A stretch of DNA of 38,008 nucleotides from an uncultured Pseudomonadota bacterium. GTDB lineage: Bacteria > Pseudomonadota > Gammaproteobacteria > Burkholderiales > Eutrophovitaceae. Positions 1 to 38,008 of this stretch are shown here, piece after piece. The notes beneath the pieces are model-generated. The model searched no databases and was not told where the DNA came from. It saw only the letters and a program-made list of their open reading frames with translations. The translations under genes and the position numbers were made by a program. The DNA lies in NCBI GenBank assembly GCA_913057675.1, contig CAJXOL010000009.1, positions 1 to 38,008 on the forward strand. Direction: 5' to 3'. The stretch's first letter is position 1, and each line of letters starts with the position of its first letter.

Positions 1-53
1 GAGAGGGTGGCCGTACCGTAGGTGCTGGCGTCGTCTCTAAAGTCACGGAGTAA
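1..53 (+). CDS. tuf: Elongation factor Tu, C-terminal fragment (5' truncated by contig start)
   Basis: The frame starting at base 3 reads EGGRTVGAGVVSKVTE*, the conserved EF-Tu C-terminus, immediately upstream of rpsJ (str-S10 linkage). Confidence 0.9.
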   Translation, partial: EGGRTVGAGVVSKVTE

Positions 54-10808: not shown

Positions 10809-10922
10809 ATGAAAGTTAAAGCATCAGTAAAAAAACTTTGTCGAAATTGCAAAATTGTTCGGCGAAAAAATGTCGTTAGGGTTATTTGTAAAGAGCCACG
10901 CCATAAGCAACGGCAAGGTTGA
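10809..10922 (+). CDS. rpmJ: 50S ribosomal protein L36
   Basis: Not in the ORF track (37 aa). Translation [37 protein letters not shown]; zinc-ligand (C-C-C-H) form of L36. Confidence 0.97.
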
Positions 10923-10957
10923 GAACATTCACCAATGAATTTTAGAAGAGATAAAAT

Positions 10958-11314
10958 ATGGCTCGTATAGCTGGCGTTAATATTCCGGATCAAAAGCACA
11001 CCTGGGTGGCTCTCACTGCTATCTATGGACTTGGTCGAACACGTGCGTTCGAGGTTTGCTCGAAAGCAGGTATTGAGCCATCCGTCAAGGTAAAAGATTT
11101 GTCTGGCGATGAAATGGAAAAGCTTAGAGAACAAATCGGTACGTTTATCGTAGAGGGAGATCTGCGACGCGAAGTCTCGATGAACATAAAGCGGTTGATG
11201 GATCTTGGTACTTATCGGGGAACACGACACCGTAAGGGCTTGCCTGTGAGGGGTCAGCGAACTAAAACGAATGCACGTACCCGTAAGGGGCCTAAACGGG
11301 CGATTAGAAAATAG
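10958..11314 (+). CDS. rpsM: 30S ribosomal protein S13
   Basis: [30 protein letters not shown]. Confidence 0.99.
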
Positions 11315-19261: not shown

Positions 19262-22200
19262 ATGAAACTGAGAGATGTCGCTTTAGAGGATAAATATATT
19301 GTTGAGGAAGGGCGCATCTTTCTCAACGGAACTCAAGCGCTGGTGCGATTGCCATTGATGCAACGTGCCAGAGACAAAAAGAGTGGATTGAATACCGCTG
19401 GCTATATCTCAGGCTATCGGGGTAGCCCATTAGGACAGTTCGATCAACAACTTGGGTTTGCGAAGAAGCATCTTAAGAATAACAATATTGTTTTTCAGGC
19501 GGGCGTGAACGAAGACCTTGCTGCAACAGCGCTGTGGGGGACACAGCAGGCTGGGATGCATGGAGAGGCTAAATACGATGGTGTGTTTGGCATTTGGTAT
19601 GGCAAAGGGCCGGGAGTAGATCGATCGGGAGATATTTTTCGACACGCTAATCTGGCTGGAACCAATAAAAATGGTGGGGTCATCGCTCTGATGGGCGACG
19701 ATCACACGTGTGAATCATCGACCACAGCGCACCAAAGTGAATTTGCATTGGTCGACGCAATGATGCCTATCCTGAATCCAGCTGGAATTCAGGAGTTATT
19801 GGATTACGGGTTGTACGGTTGGGCGCTCTCACGATATTCCGGCACGTGGGTAGGTCTTAAATGCATGAAGGATACGATTGATGCAAGCGCAACCGTTGAT
19901 GTTGGTGAAGATAGAGTGCAGTTGGTTCAGCCCCTCGAATTTGAAATGCCTCAGGGAGGCCTCAGTCTTCGCTACCCAGATCCGCCCCTAGATCAGGAAG
20001 AGCGTCTTCATAAATATAAGATTGAAGCAGTTAAGGCCTTTGCGCGAGCTAATGGAATCGATAGAGTTGAGTTTCAAGGTGAGAATGATGTCTTGGGCAT
20101 CATTACCTGTGGTAAGTCCTATCTTGATGTAAAGCAAGCACTGCATTATTTGGGGATTGATGACCGCCGTGCAAAGCAACTTGGCTTAAGTGTTTATAAA
20201 GTGGGTATGACCTGGCCGCTTGAACCAATAGGGATTACTCAGTTTGCTAACGGCCTCAAGAAGATTCTGGTTGTCGAAGAAAAGCGAGGTCTCTTAGAGC
20301 CTCAAGTGAAAGACATTTTATATTCGCTCGAGCAACGTCCCGTTGTAGTTGGTAAGAAAAATGAACAAGGTAGCGAGTTGCTGCGCTCCAACGCCGCACT
20401 CGAACCAAATGAAATTGCGATTGCGATCGCAGAGCGCATATTAGATTTCACGAATGACCATGATCTTCAAGATAAACTTAACCGAAGACGGTCAATGGCT
20501 CTTGAGACTATTGGGGTGCCGGCTATGGAGCGCACGCCATATTTTTGTTCTGGTTGCCCACACAGCACGGGAACTAAGGTGCCAGAAGGTTCTGTTGCTC
20601 TAGCTGGGATAGGGTGTCATTTTATGGCCCAATGGATGGATCGTAATACGACCGGATATACTCAAATGGGTGGAGAGGGTGCGAGTTGGATCGGAGAATC
20701 TCACTTTGTAGACACACCTCATGTTTTTCAAAATATTGGTGACGGTACGTATTTTCATTCCGGGTTTTTAGCACTAAGGGCGGCAGTCGCCTCGGGAGCT
20801 AACATGACCTATAAAATCTTGTTTAATGATGCTGTTGCCATGACAGGGGGGCAGCAAGTTGATGGCCAATTAACGGTGCCGCAAGTAACACGCCAAGTCG
20901 CAGCTGAGGGTGCAACTGAAGTTGTAGTTGTTACGGATGAACCTGATAAATATGGCGCTGATGCAGGGTTCGCTGAGGGCGTTACAGTTCATCACCGTGA
21001 TGACTATGAACGGGTGCAAAAACAGATCCGTGAAGTTCCGGGTGTGTCAGTAATCGTGTACGACCAAACTTGCGGTTCGGAGAAGAGGCGGCGGCGTAAA
21101 AGAGGAACGTTTCCTGACCCTGCTAAAAGAGCAGTGATTAATGATTTAGTCTGTGAAGGTTGTGGTGATTGTGGTGTTAAATCGAATTGCGTGTCTGTTA
21201 CCCCTCTTGAAACCGAGTTTGGCCGAAAGCGATCAATAGACCAATCAGCGTGCAATAAGGATTATTCTTGTGTTAAGGGATTTTGTCCAAGCTTTGTCAC
21301 GGTGCACGGGGGAGCTCTGAAAAAAGGCCAAGGTGCAGTATCCAAAATTGAAAAAGCCGATCTATTCCCAGCATTGTTAGACCCAGTTTTACCATCTCTA
21401 GATCAGCCGTACGGAATCCTTGTGAATGGTATTGGTGGAACGGGTGTTGTAACCATAGGCGCAATTGTTGGTATGGCGGCTCATTTAGAGAGTAAGTCCT
21501 TTGCGGGGATGGATATGGCTGGTCTCGCACAAAAAGGAGGTGCCGTTTGGAGTCATCTGCAAATCGCAAATCATCAGGAAGACTTGAAAGCGGCTCGCCT
21601 TGGTTTTGCTGGTGCTTCATTGATCCTGGGTTGCGATTTTGTGACGACCGCGAGTGAAAAGACCATGGAGTTGGGTCAAAACGGAAAAACCTATGCCATT
21701 GTTAATGTGCATGAGCAGATGACGGGTATTTTTACGCGCGACAAAAACTATCAATTCCCGAGAAAAGATCTTAAAGATACGATTCGCAAGCGATTGGGAG
21801 GGGAAAATGTGGAGTTCGTAGAAGCAACTCGTATTGCTACCTCTCTAATGGGTAACTCAATTGCATCGAATATGTTCATGTTGGGGTACGCCTACCAAAG
21901 AGGTTTATTGCCTTTGGGACACGAATCCATCAACCGGGCAATAGAGATGAATGGGGCATCGGTCGATATGAATAAGACGGCGTTTCTTTGGGGGAGGAGA
22001 GCCAGTGTTGATTTGGCGACTGTAGAGCGGTTATTGAAGCCAAAAGTTGTGGAGAGTGAGCCGGAGGAGAAACAATCGCAAACTCTTGAAGAGATCGTGC
22101 AGAGAAGAGTCGAGTTTCTCACTGACTATCAAAATGTATATTATGCGAATCAGTATAGAAACCTAGTTGATAGGGTGCGTCGGAGAGAGGAATCGGGAAC

Positions 22201-22735
22201 TATGCTTGATGGGTTAACAGAGGTCGTGGCGCGCTATCATTTTAAGCTGATGGCATATAAAGACGAATATGAGGTTGGTAGACTATATGCTAACGGTGCA
22301 TTTCAAAAGAAGGTTGGTGAACTGTTCGAGGGAAACTATAAGATTCGATATCACCTCGCTCCGCCTCTTTTCGCTAAAAAAGACTCTGAGACAGGCCACC
22401 TTAAGAAAAAAGAGTTTGGCCCATGGGTTTTTGGTGTATTTACAGTTCTGTCACGTTTGAAGTTTTTGCGTGGTACGGTTTTTGATGTCTTTGGGTGGAC
22501 TGCTGAGAGAAAGATGGAGCGACAACTCATTGAGGATTACCGTTCGTTGGTCGAGGAGATTGCCGATACGGTGGATCAAACAAATATTGATGTGGCTAAG
22601 AAGCTTCTATCTTTGCCTGAGGATATACGTGGCTTTGGGCATGTCAAAGAAGCTAGCGTCATTCAGGTAAAGCAATCGTGGCAGGTTTTGCTTGATGAGT
22701 ACCGTGCCAGAGGTGCAGTGCGCAAAGCCGCATAG
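19262..22735 (+). CDS. Fused indolepyruvate ferredoxin oxidoreductase family protein (IorA-IorB-like)
   Basis: 1157 aa; TPP-enzyme type N-terminus (GYRGSPLG), GIGCHFMAQWM, Cys-rich VCEGCGDCGVKSNC, and C-terminal GIGGTGVVTIGAIVGMAAHLE gamma-type domain. Confidence 0.92.
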   Translation: MKLRDVALEDKYIVEEGRIFLNGTQALVRLPLMQRARDKKSGLNTAGYISGYRGSPLGQFDQQLGFAKKHLKNNNIVFQAGVNEDLAATALWGTQQAGMHGEAKYDGVFGIWYGKGPGVDRSGDIFRHANLAGTNKNGGVIALMGDDHTCESSTTAHQSEFALVDAMMPILNPAGIQELLDYGLYGWALSRYSGTWVGLKCMKDTIDASATVDVGEDRVQLVQPLEFEMPQGGLSLRYPDPPLDQEERLHKYKIEAVKAFARANGIDRVEFQGENDVLGIITCGKSYLDVKQALHYLGIDDRRAKQLGLSVYKVGMTWPLEPIGITQFANGLKKILVVEEKRGLLEPQVKDILYSLEQRPVVVGKKNEQGSELLRSNAALEPNEIAIAIAERILDFTNDHDLQDKLNRRRSMALETIGVPAMERTPYFCSGCPHSTGTKVPEGSVALAGIGCHFMAQWMDRNTTGYTQMGGEGASWIGESHFVDTPHVFQNIGDGTYFHSGFLALRAAVASGANMTYKILFNDAVAMTGGQQVDGQLTVPQVTRQVAAEGATEVVVVTDEPDKYGADAGFAEGVTVHHRDDYERVQKQIREVPGVSVIVYDQTCGSEKRRRRKRGTFPDPAKRAVINDLVCEGCGDCGVKSNCVSVTPLETEFGRKRSIDQSACNKDYSCVKGFCPSFVTVHGGALKKGQGAVSKIEKADLFPALLDPVLPSLDQPYGILVNGIGGTGVVTIGAIVGMAAHLESKSFAGMDMAGLAQKGGAVWSHLQIANHQEDLKAARLGFAGASLILGCDFVTTASEKTMELGQNGKTYAIVNVHEQMTGIFTRDKNYQFPRKDLKDTIRKRLGGENVEFVEATRIATSLMGNSIASNMFMLGYAYQRGLLPLGHESINRAIEMNGASVDMNKTAFLWGRRASVDLATVERLLKPKVVESEPEEKQSQTLEEIVQRRVEFLTDYQNVYYANQYRNLVDRVRRREESGTMLDGLTEVVARYHFKLMAYKDEYEVGRLYANGAFQKKVGELFEGNYKIRYHLAPPLFAKKDSETGHLKKKEFGPWVFGVFTVLSRLKFLRGTVFDVFGWTAERKMERQLIEDYRSLVEEIADTVDQTNIDVAKKLLSLPEDIRGFGHVKEASVIQVKQSWQVLLDEYRARGAVRKAA

Positions 22736-30311: not shown

Positions 30312-31079
30312 TTAAGATTTCGTGCTTCCTAGAACTGCTGAGATTTCATCTGCTGCGGCTTTGATACGTCTTCCCCAGTCACGGTTAAGTCTATGTGAGG
30401 GTGCGGAAATAGATAGGCCGGCAACGAGGGCGTTAGAGTCGTCATAAATCCCAGCGCCGATGCAAGAAAGCCCAGCCTCTGCTTCTTCATTGTCAAAAGC
30501 ATAGCCTTGAACTTTTATCTTTCTTAGTTCGGCAAACAAAATACGGGAGTCTTTAATTGTATTTTTTGTGAAGACTTTAAGTCCATTTCTCTGAATATAA
30601 TTTAAGCTTTTGTCTTCACCATCTTCGATTAAAAAGAGCTTTCCAACTGCTGTGACATGCAAAGGCGCTTTGGCGCCAATGAGGTGAGTGACTCTTATCG
30701 CTAAGTGATTCCCTGCCACACGCTCGACATAGATCATTTCATCGCCTTGACGGATGGATAGGTTGACGGTCTCCTGAAGTTGATGATGGAGCGCTTGCAT
30801 GAATGGCAGCGCCTCTTTTCGGATATCCATTCGGGTTTTAGTGATATTGCCGAGTTCGAGTAAGCGTGTGCCTAGGCGATAGCTGCCAGTTTGGACTTTA
30901 TCGATTATGCGGTATTGAGTCAGCGCATTTAGGATTCGATGAGTTGTAGACGGATGAAGATTGGTGATTTGGGATAAATCTTTAAGGTTCATGGGGTTGC
31001 CTGATTTGGACAAAACGTCAATCAGTTCCATCATTCGGTCAATTACCTGAATGGATGTCTTGCCATTTCTATCTTTCAT
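30312..31079 (-). CDS. IclR-family transcriptional regulator
   Basis: N-terminal wHTH (NLKDLSQITNLHPSTTHRILNAL) and IclR effector domain; divergent from lutABC. Confidence 0.92.
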   Translation of the reverse strand: MKDRNGKTSIQVIDRMMELIDVLSKSGNPMNLKDLSQITNLHPSTTHRILNALTQYRIIDKVQTGSYRLGTRLLELGNITKTRMDIRKEALPFMQALHHQLQETVNLSIRQGDEMIYVERVAGNHLAIRVTHLIGAKAPLHVTAVGKLFLIEDGEDKSLNYIQRNGLKVFTKNTIKDSRILFAELRKIKVQGYAFDNEEAEAGLSCIGAGIYDDSNALVAGLSISAPSHRLNRDWGRRIKAAADEISAVLGSTKS

Positions 31080-31291: not shown

Positions 31292-32032
31292 ATGCGGGTA
31301 GGATTATTCGTCACCTGTTTGGCTGATTTGATGCGGCCAAGCATTGGGTTGGCGGCTGTTAAGTTGTTGGAGCGAGCCGGCTGTGAGGTAGTGTTCCCCG
31401 AAAGCCAAACGTGTTGTGGACAACCAGCTTACAACGCGGGAGATAGGCAATCTGCACAGCAGCTTGCTAGGAAAGTGATTTCTGAGTTTGCGGACGTAGA
31501 CTATGTAGTTGTTCCGTCTGGTTCTTGTGGCGGGATGATTAAGACTCACTATGAAGATCTCATGTCAGGTCTGCCAGAGCACCGTGTTAAAGCGCAATGG
31601 TTAGCAGCTAGAACTTATGAATTAACTGACTTTTTGGCAAATGTCATTGATATGAATTCGTTTGATACTGCGTTTCAAGGAACTATTACCTATCATGACT
31701 CGTGCGCAGGCCTTAGAGAACTCAATATTAAAGATCAGCCTAGAAAGTTGCTTGCGTATCTACCTCATGTCGATTTAAAGGAAATGGCGGGCGCTGAGCA
31801 ATGTTGTGGTTTTGGGGGGACATTTTCAGTTAAGTACGGCGATATTTCATCGAGAATAGTTGACGTTAAATGTGATGATGTTGAGGCTACACAAGTGGAT
31901 GCACTGGTCCTCGGTGATCTTGGTTGCATGATGAATATTGAGGGTAAGCTGCGCCGAAGGGGCAATCATAAAACGAAAGTACTTCATATAGCTGAGGTTC
32001 TTACCGGCTTGGTTGGCGACGAGACCGAATAG
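31292..32032 (+). CDS. lutA: Lactate utilization protein A (Fe-S oxidoreductase, YkgE-like)
   Basis: Two CCG-type motifs (SQTCCGQPAYNAGD, AEQCCGFGGTFSVKY); first gene of an A-B-C operon. Confidence 0.94.
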   Translation: MRVGLFVTCLADLMRPSIGLAAVKLLERAGCEVVFPESQTCCGQPAYNAGDRQSAQQLARKVISEFADVDYVVVPSGSCGGMIKTHYEDLMSGLPEHRVKAQWLAARTYELTDFLANVIDMNSFDTAFQGTITYHDSCAGLRELNIKDQPRKLLAYLPHVDLKEMAGAEQCCGFGGTFSVKYGDISSRIVDVKCDDVEATQVDALVLGDLGCMMNIEGKLRRRGNHKTKVLHIAEVLTGLVGDETE

Positions 32033-32049
32033 CAACAGGAAACATTTTC

Positions 32050-33468
32050 ATGGAATTAACATCACATCAATTCAAGTCAGTCTCGAGTGCGAAACTCAAA
32101 GACGTCAAGTTACAAAAGGCGTTGTATCAAGCGAAAGATGGGTTTGTCGTTTCTCGAGCCAAAGTTGTCGCGGAATTGGATAACTTTGAGGAAATACGAC
32201 AGGCTGCAGCCGACGTGAGAGACCATTGTCTTGCACATTTAGATCTCTATTTGGAGGAGTGGGAAAAGCAGGCGCAGGCGGCGGGCACGATAGTCCATTG
32301 GGCTGAGTCTTACGAAGAATTGAATGCGCTTGTTGTCAAGATTGCCCAAGATAATAAAGTCAAAAAGATTATTAAATCTAAATCGATGGTCGGCGAAGAG
32401 ACTGGGCTAAATCAGTATGTCGAAGGTCATGGTATTGAGGTCAAAGAGACGGATTTGGGTGAGTACATTATCCAACAGGCTGACGAACATCCTTCTCATA
32501 TTATTGCACCAGCAACACATAAGTCTAAGGATGATGTCGCTGATTTATTTGCGGAAAAGCACCAACGCCCACGTTTGGATGATGCGGAAAAATTGACGCA
32601 TGAGGCTAGAGAGATTTTGCGCCCCCATTTTTTAGACGCCGATATGGGGATTACTGGCGCCAACTTCATGATTGCTGAAACTGGATCTACAGTCATAGTA
32701 ACCAATGAAGGGAATGGCCGTATGACTACGACGATGCCCAGGGTTCACGTTGCGATAAGTAGTATAGAGAAATGTCTTCCTACTCTTGATGATTTTGCAT
32801 TGATCATGCGACTCTTACCTAGGTCCGCGACCGGGCAAGTGATCAGCAACTACGTGTCAATGACTACCGGGCCTAAGCGAACTGGAGACAAGGATGGGCC
32901 AGGTGCGTTTCATGTCATTATTCTAGATGTCGGTCGTACGAGAGTCTTAGGGTCAGAGTTGCGAGAGGCGCTGCGCTGTATTCGTTGTGGTGCATGTATG
33001 AACCACTGCCCTGTCTATCAAAATGTTGGCGGCCATGCCTATGGTTGGGTCTATCCGGGCCCGATTGGTTCGGTTTTGACTCCGGCCTATAATGGAATCG
33101 AAAACGCAATTGATTTACCCAATGCAGCAACTTTGTGTAATCAGTGTGGCGTAGTGTGCCCAGTGAAAATCCCGTTGCCTGACTTAATGAGAAAATTGAG
33201 AGAGAGACAGTATGAAAAAAATCTCAAGTCATCAACAGAAAAATGGTCACTTAGATTTTGGGCGTATCTCGCGCTTCGACCGAAACTATACTCAGTTGTA
33301 ACGAGAGTTATGGCTCGTGCTGGAAAGGTATTAGGAGGAGACTCGCGGCGTATTAAGCGAATGTTGTTCGCTGGGCAAGACTGGACGCGGCATAGGGATT
33401 TGCCTGCTCCTAGGGGGCGGACTTTCAGAGATATCTACATCAATAAGAATAAGACGGCTAATCGATAA
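32050..33468 (+). CDS. lutB: Lactate utilization iron-sulfur protein B (YkgF-like)
   Basis: KSKSMVGEETGLN; two Fe-S motifs CIRCGACMNHCPVY and CNQCGVVCPVK. Confidence 0.95.
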   Translation: MELTSHQFKSVSSAKLKDVKLQKALYQAKDGFVVSRAKVVAELDNFEEIRQAAADVRDHCLAHLDLYLEEWEKQAQAAGTIVHWAESYEELNALVVKIAQDNKVKKIIKSKSMVGEETGLNQYVEGHGIEVKETDLGEYIIQQADEHPSHIIAPATHKSKDDVADLFAEKHQRPRLDDAEKLTHEAREILRPHFLDADMGITGANFMIAETGSTVIVTNEGNGRMTTTMPRVHVAISSIEKCLPTLDDFALIMRLLPRSATGQVISNYVSMTTGPKRTGDKDGPGAFHVIILDVGRTRVLGSELREALRCIRCGACMNHCPVYQNVGGHAYGWVYPGPIGSVLTPAYNGIENAIDLPNAATLCNQCGVVCPVKIPLPDLMRKLRERQYEKNLKSSTEKWSLRFWAYLALRPKLYSVVTRVMARAGKVLGGDSRRIKRMLFAGQDWTRHRDLPAPRGRTFRDIYINKNKTANR

Positions 33469-33476
33469 ATTACACT

Positions 33477-34124
33477 ATGTCTGCTAGGGAAAATATTTTG
33501 GCCCGAATAAGGGCTGCAAACAAGACTGCCAATATTGACGATGTGATGGATGGTGCTGTCGCGGATCGTCTTGGTAGCCCACCCATAAGTGCTTTGCCTA
33601 AGTTAGACTGGGAATCAGAGGTGCATTTTAAACTTAGATGTAAGGAGTCAGCATCTAGTTTGGATGAGATTGCGCGCATTGAGGAATTGCCGTCCGCTGT
33701 GAATCGTTATCTCAGTAAAAATGTGCTACCTAATAAAGCTGTGTGTTGGCCAGAATTTTTGAATTTATCTTGGGCAGCCGAGGGTATTCAAATGGAGAGT
33801 AGAGGTGCTATTGGCGATGATAAAGTGGGTCTGACCGGAAGTTATTGCGCAGTCGCTGAAACGGGCACGCTAGTGCTGCTCTCGGGACCAGACAGCCATG
33901 CAACTACCAGTCTTCTTCCTGAAACCCACATCGCGGTTGTTCAAAGATCCAGAATTGTGAAAACTATGGAAGATGCTTGGCGATTAATTCGTGGTGAGGT
34001 CGGTTCGTTGCCAAGACAAGTTAATTTTATTTCTGGCCCTTCGAGAACGGCAGATATTGAAATGACCCTTGTCTATGGTGCCCATGGCCCATTTCGGGTT
34101 CATGTGATCATTATTGATCAATGA
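33477..34124 (+). CDS. lutC: Lactate utilization protein C (YkgG-like)
   Basis: CAVAETGTLVLLSGPDSHATTSLLPETHIAVV; FISGPSRTADIEMTLVYGAHGP. Confidence 0.94.
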   Translation: MSARENILARIRAANKTANIDDVMDGAVADRLGSPPISALPKLDWESEVHFKLRCKESASSLDEIARIEELPSAVNRYLSKNVLPNKAVCWPEFLNLSWAAEGIQMESRGAIGDDKVGLTGSYCAVAETGTLVLLSGPDSHATTSLLPETHIAVVQRSRIVKTMEDAWRLIRGEVGSLPRQVNFISGPSRTADIEMTLVYGAHGPFRVHVIIIDQ

Positions 34125-37707: not shown

Positions 37708-37961
37708 ATGAACCAATTGTTTAGGCTTGGGCTGCATGAGGTAGCGCGAAGATTACGTGAAGGCAAACTCAAGCCGTCAGTTTATATCAGTAACTTACTG
37801 GAGCGTATCAATGCTTTAGAGGGCAGCGTTCAGGCCTGGCAGTGGTTGGACCGAGATAGGGCTTTAGGAATTGCAAAAAAAGCTGATATGTCTGCGGCTG
37901 CCCTCCGTGCGGCTCATCCTCTCTATGGCATCCCTATTGGCGTTAAAGACAACATCTATAC
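37708..37961 (+). CDS. Amidase-family protein, N-terminal fragment (truncated by contig end/adapter)
   Basis: Translation MNQLFRLGLHEVARRLREGKLKPSVYISNLLERINAL...AAHPLYGIPIGVKDNIYT; GIPIGVKDN is the amidase-signature catalytic Lys segment. Confidence 0.85.
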
Positions 37962-38008
37962 CTGTCTCTTATACACATCTCCGAGCCCACGAGACAGGCA
38001 GAAATCTC
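37962..38008 (+). other. Illumina Nextera adapter contamination (non-genomic)
   Basis: CTGTCTCTTATACACATCT (Tn5 mosaic end) + CCGAGCCCACGAGAC (Nextera adapter) + AGGCAGAA (8-nt i7 index) + ATCTC (start of P7). Confidence 0.98.

What the first reader, a model, noticed from the sequence alone, without database searches (positions are those of the whole stretch)
37962..38008. Contig ends in un-trimmed Nextera Tn5 adapter, creating a chimeric amidase reading frame
Bases 37962-38008 are CTGTCTCTTATACACATCTCCGAGCCCACGAGAC followed by AGGCAGAA and ATCTC. This is the Nextera transposase mosaic end, adapter, i7 index (AGGCAGAA matches the one I know as N703) and the first bases of P7. The amidase frame continues through it to give ...KDNIYT|CLLYTSPSPRDRQKS, an artefact peptide. 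Any ORF or predicted protein tail here is artificial and could seed false homologs in databases.
Basis: partly seen in the sequence, partly recalled or inferred. Interest (0 to 1): 0.7.

Follow-up and report, generated by a model that had tools for sequence, protein, structure and literature searches.

The report
Untrimmed sequencing adapter at contig end
The last 47 bases of this contig are leftover Illumina Nextera library adapter, not bacterial DNA; they cut an ordinary amidase gene short and give it a false protein tail, and the same fault affects most contig ends of this genome.

Summary
Window 37962-38008 equals the first 47 nt of the reverse complement of the published Nextera N703 primer plus the Tn5 mosaic end: 19-nt mosaic end, CCGAGCCCACGAGAC, index AGGCAGAA, and ATCTC of P7. 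It is an artefact.

Four independent lines support this. (1) The same genome holds 231 copies of the mosaic end on 157 contigs; all 48 ends I read are terminal. They come in an i7 form (124) and an i5 form (92), with one index each: AGGCAGAA = N703 and TATGCAGT = reverse complement of S506. (2) The missing part of the amidase is on contig C24, which overlaps window 37925-37961 by 37 nt and starts with GACAG, the end of the mosaic end. Joined, they give a 439-aa protein. (3) Four same-genus relatives have the same 439-aa gene, reading ...DNIYTAGIPTEMG.... (4) In other assemblies the 8 nt after the adapter varies by sequencing run but not within a run.

I add its genome-wide scale, a probable assembly-graph cause for the 47-nt length, and three deposited proteins carrying adapter peptides. 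No new biology.

The parts
37962..37980 (+). Tn5 mosaic end (CTGTCTCTTATACACATCT), artificial
   Evidence: exact match, single copy in window; 231 copies in the genome, all 48 ends read are contig-terminal
37981..37995 (+). Nextera read-2 adapter segment CCGAGCCCACGAGAC, artificial
   Evidence: reverse complement of GTCTCGTGGGCTCGG of the N7xx primers
37996..38003 (+). i7 sample index AGGCAGAA (N703)
   Evidence: reverse complement of TTCTGCCT in the published N703 primer; the only i7 index in the genome ends read (14 of 14)
38004..38008 (+). first 5 nt of reverse-complemented P7 (ATCTC)
   Evidence: follows the index in 40 of 42 other MAG contig ends long enough to show it
37708..37961 (+). 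genuine 5' part (about 84 codons) of an amidase (PF01425) gene
   Evidence: Pfam Amidase 34.8 bits, profile 3-60; 79-91% identical to same-genus relatives
37925..37961 (+). 37-nt overlap with contig C24 of the same genome, which holds the rest of the amidase gene
37963..38007 (+). artificial C-terminal peptide CLLYTSPSPRDRQKS
   Evidence: translation of adapter in the amidase frame

Best explanation
The 47 bases are untrimmed Illumina Nextera adapter. Library fragments shorter than the read length were read through into the transposase end, the i7 index and P7. The reads were assembled without removing that sequence, so the assembler walked from the amidase gene into the adapter and stopped. 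Shown: identity of all four adapter segments; one index pair across the genome; the true gene continues on another contig of the same genome and in relatives. Inferred: the stop at about 47 nt comes from a k-mer graph with k = 55. All read-through paths in the metagenome merge once they share a 55-mer, that is roughly 47 adapter bases plus about 8 genomic bases that happen to coincide with another fragment. That fits with the order of 25,000-56,000 different adapter junctions.
For: Exact 47-nt identity to the reverse complement of the published N703 primer plus mosaic end. 115 forward and 116 reverse mosaic ends in the genome, none for the reversed control pattern; all 48 ends read lie at contig termini. 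Two adapter kinds (i7 124, i5 92), each with a single index; TATGCAGT is the reverse complement of S506. Amidase continues on C24 with a 37-nt overlap, and C24 itself begins with GACAG, the last 5 nt of the mosaic end. Relatives have an uninterrupted 439-aa gene. In 35 other sequencing runs the index differs by run and is constant within a run (15 runs seen more than once), followed by ATCTC in 40 of 42 cases. 127 of 129 copies in other genome contigs lie within 100 nt of a contig end. Tail lengths in this genome peak at 47 (45-50 for most), as the k = 55 model expects.
Against: None for the adapter identity. For the graph mechanism: the fit is only approximate (i7 tails observed/expected at 49, 48, 47, 46, 45 nt: 4/1.4, 9/16.8, 17/16.5, 9/6.1, 3/1.7), about a tenth to a fifth of tails are shorter (33-42 nt) and unexplained, the assembler and k used for this genome are not known here, and no two ends sharing a last 55-mer were found among 260 distinct ends held, though that sample is far too small to expect one.
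Confidence: 0.99

Rival explanations
1. A natural Tn5/IS50 insertion in the amidase gene, with the contig ending inside the transposon.
For: The mosaic end derives from IS50 ends, and Tn5 does insert into genes.
Against: The 19-mer differs from the natural outside end at 3 positions and the inside end at 4 (end sequences from my own knowledge). What follows is a sequencing primer site, a sample index and P7, not IS50. 231 copies per genome with an i7/i5 split is not a transposon pattern. C24 shows the uninterrupted gene.
Confidence: 0.003
2. Adapter ligated or chimerised at a real genomic rearrangement, so that the amidase gene is truly broken here in this organism.
For: The contig does stop here.
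Against: C24 carries the exact downstream continuation with a 37-nt identical overlap, giving an intact 439-aa protein like that of four relatives.
Confidence: 0.005
3. Bases 37962-38008 are genuine genomic sequence that resembles the adapter by chance.
For: None.
Against: 47 of 47 identical, 231 copies of the mosaic end in this genome against 0 of the reversed control; 7 of 9 genomes of the genus have none at all.
Confidence: 0.001

Closest known systems
Nextera / Nextera XT adapter read-through (Illumina; described in PMC3906532)
   Same: Identical sequence and order: reverse complement of the transposase sequence of the other read, then the index, then the PCR primer; the paper names both trimming sequences found here and notes that such sequence can affect de novo assembly.
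   Different: Nothing of substance; here it has passed from reads into an assembly at most contig ends.
Adaptor contamination in submitted genomes as screened by NCBI (FCS suite; PMC10898089)
   Same: Adaptors are listed among the common contaminants found in genome submissions.
   Different: This genome evidently was not cleaned: 231 mosaic-end copies remain.
Spurious proteins from contamination in bacterial genomes (Breitwieser et al. 2019, cited in PMC10898089)
   Same: Contaminant DNA in draft genomes yields false protein sequences.
   Different: There the contaminant is human DNA; here it is a synthetic oligonucleotide fused to real genes.

Membership tests
Nextera i7 adapter read-through | 19-nt mosaic end directly after genomic DNA | tested here: met
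   37962-37980 exact
Nextera i7 adapter read-through | CCGAGCCCACGAGAC after the mosaic end | tested here: met
   37981-37995
Nextera i7 adapter read-through | 8-nt index that is one of the kit set and constant within a library | tested here: met
   AGGCAGAA = N703; 14 of 14 i7 ends read in this genome
Nextera i7 adapter read-through | P7 sequence after the index | tested here: met
   ATCTC, 38004-38008
Nextera i7 adapter read-through | matching i5 adapter with a single kit index in the same library | tested here: met
   92 copies of the i5 form; TATGCAGT in 23 of 23 read = rc of S506
Nextera i7 adapter read-through | read coverage of genome stops at the junction | not testable with these tools
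   no reads available
Tn5/IS50 natural insertion | natural outside or inside end sequence | tested here: not met
   3 and 4 mismatches
Tn5/IS50 natural insertion | IS50 sequence beyond the end | tested here: not met
   index and P7 follow
Amidase signature family PF01425 (genomic part) | match over the family cut-off | tested here: met
   34.8 bits against 27 for the window part alone; C24 part 225 bits, profile 49-445

The most novel reading that the evidence does not exclude
Most contig breaks of this genome are caused by the adapter rather than by repeats or low coverage, and the adapter tail length records the number of adapter junctions in the whole metagenome assembly. If so, trimming and reassembly would join most contigs, and tail lengths in any deposited assembly would serve as a gauge of how dirty its reads were.
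Probability: 0.5. Interest if true: 0.15.

Novelty: not a real feature. Interest (0 to 1): 0.08.

Why it matters
It matters only as a data-quality warning. The tail should be cut at 37961 and the amidase joined with C24. Of the 48 adapter-bearing ends of this genome that I read in full, 16 carry an open frame of at least 60 codons running into the adapter, and 8 have a frame of at least 60 codons starting at the ATG inside the mosaic end (MCIRD...), so gene predictions at many contig ends will be false. The i7 tail has no stop codon in any of the three forward frames, so any gene cut there gets a clean-looking C-terminus (LSLIHISEPTR, VSYTHLRAHE or CLLYTSPSPRD). Such peptides are already in deposited proteins.

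Tried and rejected
The full-text library has no paper with the peptides CLLYTSPSPRD or SLIHISEPTR, so I could not cite a published account of these particular tails. The 47-nt query had no match in complete E. coli genomes. I tested whether the window comes from the same library as MAGs of runs SRR3933267, SRR3933379 or SRR3933377, which share i7 index AGGCAGAA: it does not, because their i5 indices are TCTACTCT, TCTACTCT and AGAGGATA, against TATGCAGT here. A search for two ends sharing the same last 55-mer, a direct test of the graph model, found none among the 260 ends held. A natural Tn5 insertion and a real gene disruption were considered and rejected as given under the rivals.

Full report
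OBSERVATION. The last 47 bases of the window read CTGTCTCTTATACACATCT-CCGAGCCCACGAGAC-AGGCAGAA-ATCTC. I built the expected oligonucleotide from a printed primer table (N703 in PMC7757419) plus the mosaic end. The window's last 47 bases equal the first 47 bases of its reverse complement, without a mismatch. The mosaic end occurs once in the window, and no other 14-base piece of either Nextera adapter is present. The window is a complete contig, C9 of a 157-contig, 2.13-Mb genome, 94.9% complete.

THE WHOLE GENOME IS AFFECTED. The mosaic end occurs 231 times in this genome, 115 forward and 116 reverse, with none for the reversed control pattern. I read 48 of these ends in full and all are terminal. 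The i7 form occurs 124 times and the i5 form 92 times. Where the index is complete it is AGGCAGAA in 14 of 14 i7 ends and TATGCAGT in 23 of 23 i5 ends. These are N703 and the reverse complement of S506 in the same table. One index pair over the genome is what a single library gives and is not what any genomic repeat would give. If each copy sits at its own contig end, 231 of 314 ends (about 74%) carry at least the full mosaic end. Shorter remnants, such as the GACAG of C24, add to that.

WHERE THE REAL GENE GOES. The genomic part, 37708-37961, is the start of an amidase (PF01425, 34.8 bits). A family search in the same genome found the complementary piece at the very start of contig C24 (profile 49-445, 225 bits). 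C24 begins GACAG-ATGGCATCCC...: GACAG is the last five bases of the mosaic end, and the next 37 bases are identical to window 37925-37961. Joined at this overlap, the two give an uninterrupted 439-aa protein. Four same-genus genomes have a 439-aa homologue each, reading DNIYTAGIPTEMG at the point where the window turns into adapter. The best relatives are 91% identical over the genomic part. C9 and C24 end at two separate transposase cuts 37 bp apart, since a single cut would leave only the 9-bp overlap of Tn5 (the 9-bp figure is from general knowledge).

HOW IT AROSE. Nextera libraries often contain fragments shorter than the read length, and reads then run into the other adapter, index and primer. 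PMC3906532 describes this, names both sequences to trim, and warns that it can affect de novo assembly. In a k-mer assembly graph every such path leads to the same adapter, so contigs end there. The tail length is informative: 5' tails in this genome peak at 47 and mostly lie between 45 and 50, rather than being spread as read lengths would be. If paths merge at the first shared 55-mer, the adapter part should be 55 minus the length of the longest chance match of the last genomic bases among all junctions, about log4 of their number. Fitting gives about 56,000 (i7) and 25,000 (i5) junctions, with a rough fit. MAGs from SRR3933xxx runs with SPAdes-type contig names peak at 46-49. This step is inference: I had neither the graph nor the reads, and the short tails of 33-42 nt are not explained by it.

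OTHER ASSEMBLIES. 127 of 129 copies in genome contigs and 121 of 123 in viral contigs lie within 100 nt of an end. Among 35 identifiable sequencing runs, each shows a single index, and different runs show different ones. In an even draw of 369 genomes of the class, 6 including this one have the exact 34-mer; one of them (G387) has 238 copies. In the genus, 2 of 9 are affected: this one and G004 with 382 mosaic ends. Forty-one of 50,697 phage records and 9 of 72,556 plasmid records have it, and the 47-nt tail has no match in 5,426 complete E. coli genomes.

FALSE PROTEINS. The i7 tail with AGGCAGAA has no stop in its three forward frames; the i5 tail has one open frame (CLLYTSDAADDMQCV) and two that stop. 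In the reverse direction the mosaic end supplies an ATG (MCIRD...). Of the 48 ends read, 16 have a frame of at least 60 codons running into the adapter, and 8 have a frame of at least 60 codons starting at that ATG. Three deposited proteins in other records show the effect: WJD16770.1 (plasmid, ThiF family) ends LSLIHISEPTRLFIL, VUF53723.1 (phage) begins VYKRQ, and QBO66118.1 (phage baseplate protein, with the gene split in two at the adapter) ends VSWARRCV.

VERDICT. It is a technical artefact of a well-known kind and not a biological feature; the tail should be trimmed at 37961 and any protein ending CLLYTSPSPRDRQKS discarded or completed from C24.

Noticed in passing
window 1-53: The 5' end of the contig carries no adapter; it starts inside the last codons of EF-Tu (EGGRTVGAGVVSKVTE*). 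tuf is commonly duplicated, so this end is probably an ordinary repeat break, in contrast to the 3' end.
   Followed up: partly
L341 (MK327946.1, E. coli phage vB_EcoM_G4507): A 'complete' T4-like phage record has the adapter in its interior, splitting the baseplate hub/tail lysozyme gene into two annotated CDSs; one protein (QBO66118.1) ends in adapter-derived residues.
   Followed up: partly
L342 (CP127811.1, S. aureus plasmid pC205_2): A 'complete' plasmid record has the adapter in its interior; the annotated ThiF-family protein WJD16770.1 ends in the adapter peptide LSLIHISEPTR plus LFIL.
   Followed up: partly
L063 (JAOAJQ010000047.1) and L044 (NZ_JAELTJ010000202.1): Copies of the i7 adapter well inside contigs (3976 and 190 nt from the end), which suggests chimeric joins through the adapter rather than mere tails.
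   Followed up: no
G004 (same genus) and G387 (same class): Two further species-representative genomes are heavily adapter-tailed (382 mosaic ends; 238 i7 34-mers).
   Followed up: partly
window 19262-22735: 1157-aa protein with TPP_enzyme_C, POR and DUF6537 domains, which looks like a fused indolepyruvate:ferredoxin oxidoreductase; ordinary but large.
   Followed up: no
window 31292-34124: Three adjacent genes with CCG, LUD/Fer4/LutB_C and LUD domains: a lactate-utilisation lutABC-like operon beside an IclR regulator (30312-31079, minus strand).
   Followed up: no
window 10871-10990: Rfam Alpha_RBS (alpha operon ribosome binding site) just over threshold (39.2 against 38 bits), among the ribosomal protein genes.
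   Followed up: no
5' and 3' tails of G000 contigs: A minority of adapter tails are 33-42 nt long instead of about 47, not explained by the k = 55 merging model.
   Followed up: no
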